Shown in pieces: positions 824-43,945 of a stretch of DNA of 54,485 nt (position 1 is the first letter of the stretch; every line of letters begins with the position of its first letter). The notes under the pieces are model-generated. The model saw only the letters and a program-made list of their open reading frames with translations, did no database searches and was not told where the DNA came from. The stretch lies in contig CAMAWC010000016.1 in assembly GCA_945861875.1 (NCBI GenBank), forward strand, positions 1 through 54,485. The letters are read 5' to 3'. The stretch comes from Bordetella parapertussis. Its GTDB lineage: Bacteria > Pseudomonadota > Gammaproteobacteria > Burkholderiales > SG8-39. Made by a program: the position numbers and the translations under genes.

Positions 824-851
824 AAAAAAAGGGGGCATCGCCCCCTTTTTT
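824..851. terminator. bidirectional intrinsic terminator
   Basis: AAAAAAA-GGGGGC-AT-CGCCCCC-TTTTTT: a GC-rich stem with a tiny loop flanked by A and T tracts, so it can stop transcription from both sides. It sits between the FKBP gene (+) and the convergent Gly-rich protein gene (-). Confidence 0.85.
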
Positions 852-39003: not shown

Positions 39004-40185
<1,182 letters not shown>

Positions 40186-40191
40186 GCCGGC

Positions 40192-40977
40192 CTACTTGGG
40201 TTGCTCGACCGGGGTGCCGGCCTCGGCCTCCGCCTTGGGGGCGTCCGGATCGGTTGCGGCGCGTTTGCCGACAAAGCGCCCGAGCAGGATGCCCAGCTCG
40301 TAGAGCAGGCACATCGGGATGGCCAGCAGCAATTGCGACAGCACGTCCGGTGGGGTGACCACCGCGGCAACGACAAAGGAGCCGACGATGACATAGGGCC
40401 GCGCCTGGGTCAGTTGTTCGATGTTCACCACGCCCATTCGCACCAGCACCACCACTACGATGGGAATCTCGAAAGTGAGGCCGAAGGCGGCGAACATGGT
40501 CATGACAAAGTTGAGGTATTGCTCGATATCCGGCGCAGGGGTGATGCTCTTTGGGGCGAATTCGTTGATGAAGGCAAAGATCTTGCCGAACACGAAGAAA
40601 TAGCAAAACGCCACACCGCACAGGAACAGCCCGGTGCTGGCGACGATGACCGGCAGGGCAAAACGCTTTTCGTGCTGGTAGAGGCCCGGTGCGATGAACG
40701 ACCAGGCCTGGTAGAGCACATAGGGCAGCGCCCCCATGAAGGCGACCATCATGGTGACCTTGACCGGGATGAGAAAGGGCGTGACCACGCCGGTGGCGAT
40801 CATCTTGGTGCCCTCGGGCAGCGCCTTCATCAGCGGCAGCGCCAGCGCATCGTAAATGGCCGAGGACCCGGGCCAGAAAAACAGCACGACAAACACCACG
40901 GCCACGGCGAGCAACGCGCGCAGCAGCCGGTCGCGCAACTCGACCAGGTGGGAAATAAAGGTGTCCTGGACGCTCAT
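40192..40977 (-). CDS. tatC: Tat translocase subunit TatC
   Basis: A 261-residue protein with six membrane helices. Characteristic parts are the start [81 protein letters not shown] and [23 protein letters not shown]. TatC recognises twin-arginine signal peptides together with TatB. Its ATG overlaps the tatB stop by four bases (40974-40977). It is convergent with the protease gene, six bases apart. Confidence 0.95.
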
Positions 40978-41495
40978 GCGCTGCCGGTCTTGGCCGCTTG
41001 CTGCGGCGGGTTGCCGACCGCGGCGTCCGGAGCGGCCGGCGCGGGCTCGGCCACCACCGGATTAAAGTGTTCGGCCGGGGGAACCGGGATCTCGGCCGCC
41101 GGCGCGGGGGCCGGGATGCCGTCGGCGGCCGCCTGTATCGCCGCATCCATGCCGGTGCCGTCGGCGGCCGGTGCGGCAACCGCCTTGCTGGCGTCGTCCA
41201 GCGCCTCGGTGACCGGGGCGATGCTCTGGTTGATGGCCTGCTCTGCCGAATTGATTTGCGTGGTGACGGAAGTCTCGACTTCCTTGGCGGCGTCGGTGAA
41301 TTGCGTCTGGATCTTGCGCAGTTCGTCGAGCTCCATTTCGCGGTTGATGTCGGCCTTGACGTCATTGACGTAGCGCTGCAGGCGGCCGACCAAGAGGCCC
41401 ACCGTACGCGCGACCTTGGGCAGGCGCTCGGGGCCGATGACGATCAGCGCAACGACACCAATGACGACTAACTCGGAAAATCCGACATCAAACAT
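40974..41495 (-). CDS. tatB: Tat translocase subunit TatB
   Basis: A 173-residue protein. The N-terminal helix is [26 protein letters not shown], followed by a long amphipathic helix ([30 protein letters not shown]) and a Pro/Ala-rich tail. GPERLP is the TatB signature. It partners TatC in signal-peptide binding. It follows tatA after a 105-base gap that holds a strong intrinsic terminator. Confidence 0.94.
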
Positions 41496-41533
41496 GGCTG
41501 GGTGGACTTGGGAAAATGGGGCTGCAGCGCCTG

Positions 41534-41565
41534 AAAAAACAAACCGCGCAGGAGCGCGCGGTTTG
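41534..41565 (-). terminator. intrinsic terminator between tatA and tatB
   Basis: On the minus strand CAAACCGCGC-GCTCCT-GCGCGGTTTG forms a perfect 10-pair stem with a six-base loop, followed directly by TTTTTT (41539-41534). It lies after the tatA stop and before the tatB start, inside a transcription unit that must also supply tatB and tatC. Confidence 0.8.
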
Positions 41566-41600
41566 CGTGGAGCGGGACTGTGCGACGGCTTGCCGTCGCC

Positions 41601-41825
41601 TCAGGCCTTGCTCTCGGTCTTGGTGTGCGCCTCCACGTCTATCGTGCGGCCGGTCACCTGCGCGTCAGCGGGCTTGTCTGCGGCGCCGGATTCCTTCATG
41701 CCATCCTTGAAGCCTTTGACAGCGCCGCCCAGGTCGGAACCCATGTTGCGCAACTTCTTGGTGCCAAACACCAACATCACAATGACCAGGACGATCAGCC
41801 AGTGCCATATGCTGAAAGAACCCAT
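41601..41825 (-). CDS. tatA: Tat translocase subunit TatA
   Basis: A 74-residue protein: one N-terminal membrane helix ([21 protein letters not shown]), the hinge [10 protein letters not shown], an amphipathic helix ([15 protein letters not shown]) and a polar tail. It forms the pore of the Tat system, and many copies are needed per TatBC. It lies 79 bases downstream of the HIT gene. Confidence 0.94.
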
Positions 41826-41904
41826 TGTTGCCTCCGTTAACTCGGTTACGTTTGTCCGGTATTCGAACCAGGACTGATAGACACGCCCCGTTCACTATTT
41901 CCCG

Positions 41905-42276
41905 CTATTTCCTTCTGGCCACCATTGAGCCCAATGGTTCGGGACCGCCGATGACGTGCATATGCACATGATACACCTCCTGCTGCCCCACGCGCCCGGT
42001 GTTGATGATGGTGCGAAAACCGTCGCCGGCCCCCTGCTCGCGCGCCAGGCGCCCCGCCACCGTGAGCATCCTGCCCATGGCGCTGGTGTGCTCGGAACCG
42101 GCCTCATACAGGCTGGCGACGTGCATTTTGGGGATGATGAGGAAATGCACCGGCGCCACCGGGTGCAGGTCGTGAAAAGCGAGCACTTCCTCGTCCTCAA
42201 ACACCTTTTTCGCCGGGATCTCGCCCCTGACGATCTTGCAGAACACGCAGTTCGGGTCGCCCGCATTCGTTGACAT
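41905..42276 (-). CDS. HIT-family nucleotide hydrolase (HinT-like)
   Basis: A 123-residue protein with the HIT triad VYHVHMHVIGGPEPLG near its C-terminus and the N-terminal CVFCKIVRGEIPAKKVFEDEEVLAFHDL, whose Cys residues may bind zinc. HinT-type enzymes split AMP from small amides. The ATG at 42276 overlaps the hisE stop by one base. Its place between hisE and tatA is common in betaproteobacteria. Confidence 0.92.
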   Translation of the reverse strand: MSTNAGDPNCVFCKIVRGEIPAKKVFEDEEVLAFHDLHPVAPVHFLIIPKMHVASLYEAGSEHTSAMGRMLTVAGRLAREQGAGDGFRTIINTGRVGQQEVYHVHMHVIGGPEPLGSMVARRK

Positions 42277-42638
42277 CAGCGTTTCTCCGACTCGCTGCGC
42301 ACGCCGTCCTTGCGCGCGGCTTTTTCGTCTATGCCGGAAATGCCCTCACGGCGTCGCAATTCCATCAGCACGTCCGAGGGCTTGAGGCCGTAGTGCGCCA
42401 GCATGACAAGGCAGTGGAACCACAAGTCGGCGGTCTCGCCGACGATGCGCAGGCGGTCACCGTCCTTGGCCGCCATCACCGTCTCGGTGGCTTCCTCGCC
42501 GATTTTTTTCAGGATGGCGTCCTCGCCACGGGCGAGCAGGCGCGACACATAGGAGGCATCCGCATCGCCGTCCTTGCGCGCCTCGATCACCTGCGACAGG
42601 CGTTCGAGGATGTCGCCGGTGTGCTTGTCATTTCCCAT
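42276..42638 (-). CDS. hisE: phosphoribosyl-ATP pyrophosphatase
   Basis: A 120-residue all-helical MazG-type protein ([69 protein letters not shown]). EEATE holds the metal-binding acidic residues. It hydrolyses PR-ATP to PR-AMP in histidine synthesis. ATG at 42638 overlaps the end of hisI, so a fused hisIE is separated here into two overlapping genes, as usual in betaproteobacteria. Confidence 0.93.
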
Positions 42639-43011
42639 AAATCTCCTTCGGGTCCTTGAGGACCGCATCGGTCACCACCCAGCCGCCGTTCTCCAGTTTC
42701 TGGAAAAAGCAATTGTGGCGACCGGTATGGCAGGCAATGCCGCCGACCTGCTCGACCCTGAGCAGCACCACGTCCTCATCGCAATCGAGGCGCACTTCCA
42801 GCACTTTTTGCAGGTGGCCCGATTCCTCGCCCTTGTGCCAGAGTTTCTTGCGCGAGCGTGACCAGTACACCGCCCGGCCGGTCTTTACCGTCTCTTGCAG
42901 CGCGTCGCGGTTCATCCATGCGAGGGTCAGCACCTTGTTGCTCGCGGCCTCCTGGGTGATCACCGGCACGAGGCCGTTGGCGTCCCACCTGACCTTGTCG
43001 AGCCAGTTCAT
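42628..43011 (-). CDS. hisI: phosphoribosyl-AMP cyclohydrolase
   Basis: A 127-residue enzyme. The metal ligands are in [29 protein letters not shown] (acidic cluster plus two Cys and His). [22 protein letters not shown] is the substrate-binding region. It opens the purine ring of PR-AMP. It follows hisF across a repeat-filled spacer. Confidence 0.94.
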
Positions 43012-43018
43012 GGGGGCG

Positions 43019-43150
43019 TGAAAGGTGAAAAGTGAAAAGTGACGGGAGCGCCCGCGCAGGCGCCACGCCCAGCGCGTTCAATATTCACCCCTGCCCGCTT
43101 GGTTTTACCTTTCACCTTTCACCTTTCACCTTTCACTTTTCACTTTTCAC
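43019..43150. repeat. heptamer repeat array between hisF and hisI
   Basis: GTGAAAGGTGAAAAGTGAAA at 43019-43043 and an inverted run of seven-base units, TTTCACC (several) then TTTCACT, at 43103-43150. The two parts are complementary, so the spacer can form a long imperfect hairpin. Confidence 0.8.
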
Positions 43151-43153
43151 GCT

Positions 43154-43945
<792 letters not shown>

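What the first reader, a model, noticed from the sequence alone, without database searches (positions are those of the whole stretch)
41534..41565. Perfect intrinsic terminator inside tatABC, after tatA
Seen: a 10-pair perfect stem, six-base loop and six Ts on the coding strand between tatA and tatB. Known: TatA is needed in large excess over TatB and TatC. Inference: partial termination sets the TatA:TatBC ratio at the mRNA level.
Basis: partly seen in the sequence, partly recalled or inferred. Interest (0 to 1): 0.52.

Follow-up and report, generated by a model that had tools for sequence, protein, structure and literature searches.

The report
Conserved terminator between tatA and tatB
Right after the first gene of a bacterial protein-export operon sits a stop signal for transcription that has been kept in many related bacteria with changing letters, and that most likely lets the cell make far more of the pore protein TatA than of its partners TatB and TatC.

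Summary
It is real: under one fixed criterion the window's family has a sense-strand terminator at this junction in 53 of 88 loci, against 4 antisense, a mean of 2.25 in shuffles, and 0-4 of 81-83 at three other junctions of the same operon. The sequence turns over between genera while hairpin, U-tract and position stay; compensatory changes support the stem. Zoogloea, Thauera and Aromatoleum/Azoarcus carry their own version. It is rare elsewhere in the order (4 of 85) and absent in 40 other Gammaproteobacteria plus E. coli. The gap to tatB is too short for a promoter in most cases, so TatBC must come from read-through. Partial termination tuning TatA over TatBC is the best reading, but is unmeasured. 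Internal stoichiometric terminators are known (Clostridia ABC importers), E. coli uses differential decay for tatA, and Vibrio has a terminator after tatB. So this is a new member of a known kind. Translation also contributes: tatA has a Shine-Dalgarno nearly everywhere, tatB rarely.

The parts
41601..41825 (-). tatA, 74 aa, with a GGAGG Shine-Dalgarno before its ATG
   Evidence: ORF; NCBIfam TatA 5.5e-36; 5-base SD match
41582..41599 (-). first small hairpin (7 bp, loop CAAG) directly after the tatA stop, no U-tract; function unknown
   Evidence: in the minimum-energy fold
41540..41565 (-). terminator hairpin: 10 perfect pairs, 6-nt loop
   Evidence: conserved in place in relatives
41534..41539 (-). 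U-tract, six Ts
41496..41533 (-). rest of the tatB leader: no Shine-Dalgarno, best promoter-like match only 6 of 12
40974..41495 (-). tatB, 173 aa
   Evidence: TIGR01410 5.7e-22
40192..40977 (-). tatC, 261 aa; only tatC match found in the genome
   Evidence: (TIGR00945 1.6e-64)
41905..42276 (-). HIT-family gene upstream of tatA, end of the his gene run
42276..42668 (-). hisE
42628..43011 (-). hisI
43154..43945 (-). hisF

Best explanation
It is a leaky intrinsic transcription terminator placed in the his-HIT-tatA-tatB-tatC gene run just after tatA. Polymerases coming down the operon transcribe tatA; at the hairpin plus U-tract a large share stop and release an mRNA ending after tatA, with a stable 3' hairpin; the rest read through into tatB and tatC. 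tatA mRNA therefore exceeds tatBC mRNA, and a strong tatA versus SD-less tatB ribosome site adds to the excess of TatA protein. Shown: genes, hairpin, U-tract, sense-only conservation at this junction, compensatory changes, short promoter-free gap, SD difference. Inferred: that it terminates in vivo, that termination is partial, and that the ratio is what selection keeps.
For: 53 of 88 same-family loci have such a sense terminator, against 4 of 88 antisense, mean 2.25 (max 8) of 88 shuffled, and other junctions HIT|tatA 4/83, hisE|HIT 0/81, tatB|tatC 0/83; 17 of 1567 coding 100-nt windows. The result holds at thresholds -8 to -14 kcal/mol (53, 53, 52, 45 of 88). On a tree of 241 loci the trait clusters (15 changes, 63 in shuffles), with one clade 32 of 33 and a Zoogloea/Thauera/Aromatoleum clade 16 of 18. 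The letters differ by clade. The stem shows 95.9% paired cells and 18 both-side changes against 6.3 shuffled. Of 69 f1 spacers with a hairpin of -12 or lower, 51 have 4 or more Ts in the 7 nt after it, 6 of 69 in the 7 nt before. The stem ends within 35 nt of the tatB start in 48 of 74 loci and within 45 nt in 51 of 74 (window 44); no promoter-like match of 8/12 or better in 74. tatC has no second match in the genome. Precedent for the mechanism: PMC9045158.
Against: No transcript or protein data. 35 of 88 same-family loci, 81 of 85 loci of other families and 41 of 41 loci outside the order (E. coli included) lack it by this criterion, so the TatA excess does not depend on it. The SD difference is present with or without a terminator, so the terminator may be a minor contributor. 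The criterion was fixed after a first look at the spacers. MAG loci dominate the sample.
Confidence: 0.72

Rival explanations
1. The hairpin is mainly a block to 3'-5' exonucleases: the operon is transcribed evenly, cut behind tatA, and the tatA part is protected, as in E. coli.
For: E. coli tatA mRNA is more stable than tatBC mRNA (PMC5927463, passages). A terminator hairpin would protect the tatA end anyway. The window carries a second hairpin next to it.
Against: Dar and Sorek say their protective hairpins were not followed by a uridine tract and mostly lay inside the downstream gene; here 51 of 69 strong f1 spacer hairpins have 4 or more Ts behind them and the hairpin is in the spacer.
Confidence: 0.15
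2. Termination is complete and tatBC has its own promoter, so the two units are separate.
For: Window gap is 44 nt, just long enough for a promoter overlapping the hairpin; in the Thauera/Aromatoleum/Zoogloea group 45-57 nt remain in most. Promoters other than sigma-70 were not scanned.
Against: In 48 of 74 loci 35 nt or less remain. No promoter-like match of 8/12 or better in 74 loci, 1.7 expected. Any promoter inside tatA would still meet the terminator.
Confidence: 0.06
3. It is a conditional switch (attenuator or antitermination site) that changes the TatA:TatBC ratio with growth conditions.
For: The window's fold holds an extra outer helix and a first hairpin. In the GGCGCC group letters beyond the U-tract (TTCTC) are partly conserved.
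Against: No competing antiterminator seen; no Rfam family reaches its gathering score (SorY 24.6 bits against 111, Leu_leader 23.3 against 50). The spacers of relatives share no further structure that I found.
Confidence: 0.05
4. Chance hairpin or a dispersed repeat without function.
For: GC-rich genomes form hairpins easily; 4 antisense hits of 88.
Against: Single copy in the genome; sense-only enrichment and clade conservation.
Confidence: 0.02

Closest known systems
Internal intrinsic terminators behind substrate-binding-protein genes of ABC importers, Ruminiclostridium cellulolyticum (PMC9045158; abstract and passages read)
   Same: Stem-loop plus U-rich tract in the spacer between a high-copy first gene and low-copy membrane partners; read-through share sets the ratio there.
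   Different: Clostridia and ABC importers, with RNA evidence; here tatABC in betaproteobacteria, no RNA evidence.
tatA mRNA stabilisation in E. coli (PMC5927463; passages read)
   Same: Same operon, same bias: more tatA than tatBC mRNA.
   Different: By differential decay; operons with an intrinsic terminator between genes were left out of that study; the E. coli tatA|tatB spacer is 3 nt.
tatAB suboperon of Vibrio parahaemolyticus (PMC8577284; passages read)
   Same: A Rho-independent terminator inside tatABC, seen in direct RNA sequencing and predicted from sequence.
   Different: The site yields a tatAB transcript, so it lies after tatB, not between tatA and tatB.

Membership tests
Intrinsic (Rho-independent) terminator | G+C-rich stem-loop | tested here: met
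   10 pairs, -17.1 kcal/mol
Intrinsic (Rho-independent) terminator | U-tract directly after the stem on the transcribed strand | tested here: met
   six Ts; 51 of 69 strong hairpins of the family
Intrinsic (Rho-independent) terminator | RNA 3' ends at the U-tract in vivo or in vitro | not testable with these tools
   no RNA data at hand
Internal stoichiometric terminator (as in PMC9045158) | Lies between a gene needed in excess and its low-copy partners in one operon | tested here: met
   for the genes; the excess of TatA is from the papers, not measured here
Internal stoichiometric terminator (as in PMC9045158) | Downstream genes depend on read-through, no own promoter | tested here: inconclusive
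   little room and no sigma-70-like match, but no transcript start data
Internal stoichiometric terminator (as in PMC9045158) | Termination efficiency matches the ratio of transcripts | not testable with these tools
   needs RNA reads
Protective hairpin of differentially decaying operons (PMC5927463) | Hairpin without a uridine tract | tested here: not met
Attenuator or riboswitch leader | Member of a described RNA family | tested here: not met
   nothing at gathering score in 40100-42300
Attenuator or riboswitch leader | Competing antiterminator structure | tested here: inconclusive
   the outer helix does not compete with the terminator stem; only the window's own fold was looked at

The most novel reading that the evidence does not exclude
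The point just after tatA is a place where bacteria have repeatedly installed, and kept under selection, different mRNA-level devices to make TatA exceed TatBC: terminators of several unrelated sequences in betaproteobacterial lineages, protective decay in enterics, a later terminator in Vibrio. In this view the terminator's efficiency should track the TatA:TatBC need of each lineage.
Probability: 0.4. Interest if true: 0.62.

Novelty: new member of a known kind. Interest (0 to 1): 0.47.

Why it matters
How cells make the TatA excess that the Tat pore is thought to need is only partly known. A terminator kept at one fixed place while its letters change, also in cultured Zoogloea, Thauera and Aromatoleum/Azoarcus, gives a direct handle: change one hairpin and read the TatA:TatBC ratio and export. 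It also adds a case to the set of operons in which an internal terminator is conserved as a likely ratio setter.

Tried and rejected
Rejected: dispersed repeat (26-mer single copy). Rejected as explanation by a known RNA family (only sub-threshold matches). Rejected for most loci: separate tatBC promoter. Outside the order the feature was not found: 0 of 41 loci (40 regions taken out of 126 genomes with a TatA match, plus E. coli K-12). In other families of the same order 4 of 85 loci (24 loci, 40; itself matched 246 of 250 genomes, so most were not fetched). I wondered whether genomes without the terminator carry extra stand-alone tatA copies instead; counts tallied by eye (2 of 52 against 5 of 33) gave Fisher p = 0.10 and ignore kinship: dropped.

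Rows dropped before counts: L047 and L059-L062 (stand-alone tatA, no tatB); L078 and L117 (layout not found); ten named loci that repeat other loci (one search lists them), so named loci with a terminator are 23 of 78 before and 17 of 68 after removal. 13 of 98 family genomes had no TatA match. The 88 family loci come from 85 genomes; three have a second tat locus (L172, L187, L195). Near misses count as absent: L111 (-9.7 kcal/mol).

Literature: eight searches of the held open library; none listed a terminator between tatA and tatB. This says nothing about subscription journals. Papers seen: PMC5927463, PMC9045158 and PMC8577284 as abstract and/or passages; all others only as search listings.

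Full report
What is there. The gene run is on the minus strand: hisF, hisI, hisE, a HIT-family gene, tatA (41825-41601), tatB (41495-40974), tatC (40977-40192), identified by ORFs and NCBIfam profiles. Between tatA and tatB lie 105 nt. They hold a small 7-bp hairpin right after the tatA stop (41599-41582), then the reported hairpin (41565-41540, ten perfect pairs, loop GCTCCT) and six Ts (41539-41534). The gap from the stem to the tatB ATG is 44 nt. The scan of the whole window with my script lists no other intergenic hairpin plus U-tract on the minus strand within the his-tat run, nor one behind tatC, whose end lies 6 nt from a convergent plus-strand ORF.

Is it more than chance? I took the tatA|tatB spacers of relatives: 88 loci of the window's own family (85 of 98 genomes with a TatA match), 85 loci of other families of the order, and 80 named contigs from genome contigs (the best 80 of 584 relatives), 78 of them usable. 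The criterion (stem of 5 or more pairs, at most one mismatch, four G-C pairs, -10 kcal/mol or lower, 4 or more Ts in 7) was written after I had looked at the first spacers, so controls matter more than the count itself. Result: family 53 of 88 sense, 4 antisense, mean 2.25 and maximum 8 in 20 rounds of shuffling; HIT|tatA 4 of 83, hisE|HIT 0 of 81, tatB|tatC 0 of 83; 17 of 1567 windows of 100 nt inside coding sequence. These other spacers are shorter (medians 15-35 nt with flanks against 94), but fixed 100-nt stretches behind each stop give the same picture: 53, 1, 0 and 2. Thresholds from -8 to -14 change little.

What is kept. The letters are not the same: GGGCGCC/GGCGCCC with TTTTNTTC in one large clade, GATGCCGGG/CCCGGC with TTTTTT in another, CAAACCGCGC/GCGCGGTTTG in the window, AGGGGCGC/GCGCCCCT in the Zoogloea/Thauera/Aromatoleum group. 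The place is kept: the stem begins a median of 21 nt after the tatA stop (quartiles 20 and 24) in 74 loci. In an alignment of 38 hairpins of the GGCGCC type, 95.9% of cells pair, 18 cells show changes on both sides against 6.3 in shuffles, and slid structures do far worse; the structure was derived from these sequences, which favours it. Of 69 family spacers with a hairpin of -12 kcal/mol or lower, 51 have 4 or more Ts in the next 7 nt, and 6 have them in the 7 nt before. This speaks for termination rather than a bare structural block.

Where it occurs. On a quick tree (FastTree) of 241 loci the label needs 15 changes, 63 in shuffles; one clade has it in 32 of 33 rows, the Zoogloea/Thauera/Aromatoleum clade in 16 of 18, and the small clade around the window in 5 of 6. 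Azonexus/Dechloromonas and Comamonadaceae rows lack it. Other families of the order: 4 of 85. Forty loci from other parts of the class and E. coli K-12: 0 of 41; the E. coli spacer is 3 nt. The tree cannot tell gain from loss.

How it most likely works. tatC has no second match in the genome (93% complete), so TatC has to be made from here. A promoter behind the terminator has no room in most relatives: 35 nt or less from stem to tatB start in 48 of 74, 45 or less in 51 of 74, and no match of 8/12 or better to a sigma-70 consensus in 74 loci. So read-through is the simplest source of tatBC mRNA, and termination must be partial. In addition, tatA has a Shine-Dalgarno match of 4 or more bases in 236 of 240 loci and tatB in 37 of 241 (summed over its four groups; tatB starts were placed by similarity to the window's TatB). 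This translational bias exists with and without terminators and may be the older, more general part of the ratio. The shares of the two cannot be told apart here.

Against known cases. PMC9045158 (abstract, passages) shows internal terminators behind substrate-binding-protein genes setting ABC importer ratios in Clostridia; the mechanism proposed here is that one in another operon. PMC5927463 (passages) shows that E. coli tatA mRNA outlasts tatBC mRNA; its protective hairpins lack a U-tract and it excluded operons with terminators between genes. PMC8577284 (passages) reports a Rho-independent terminator that makes a tatAB suboperon in Vibrio parahaemolyticus. No searched paper describes a tatA|tatB terminator.

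Limits. Everything rests on sequence. MAGs dominate; family and genus codes are anonymous, and I did not name the family.

Noticed in passing
L047 (G000:C39) 1695-1865 +: A second, stand-alone 56-aa TatA-like ORF in the same genome, 79% identical over 53 residues, with no tatB or tatC nearby.
   Followed up: partly
window 41490-41606 -: In the minus-strand fold the tatA stop region GCCUGAG pairs with UUCAGGC just behind the U-tract, enclosing both hairpins in a three-way junction; z = -3.48. Could matter for read-through RNA or be chance.
   Followed up: partly
window 41496-41515 and 41826-41845 -, and 241 related loci: tatA has a Shine-Dalgarno match nearly everywhere (236 of 240 loci), tatB rarely (37 of 241), whether or not a terminator is present.
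   Followed up: partly
alignment A1, columns after the stem: In the GGCGCC-type group the letters behind the U-tract (roughly TTCTC) are also partly conserved; no explanation.
   Followed up: no
window 43020-43155: Between hisI and hisF, runs of GGTGAAAAGTGAAAAGTGA and, 70-100 nt on, the reverse complement type CACCTTTCACCTTTCACTTTTCAC: an inverted, repeat-rich spacer inside the his genes.
   Followed up: no
window 40185-40192: tatC and a convergent plus-strand ORF end 6 nt apart, with no strong terminator found for either.
   Followed up: partly
window 826-850: Palindromic AAAAAGGGGGC...GCCCCCTTTTT, a terminator-like site on both strands.
   Followed up: no
L172, L187, L195: Second tatA-tatB loci in three genomes of the family, with a 9-nt spacer, no terminator and no his genes found beside them; they group together in the tree.
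   Followed up: partly
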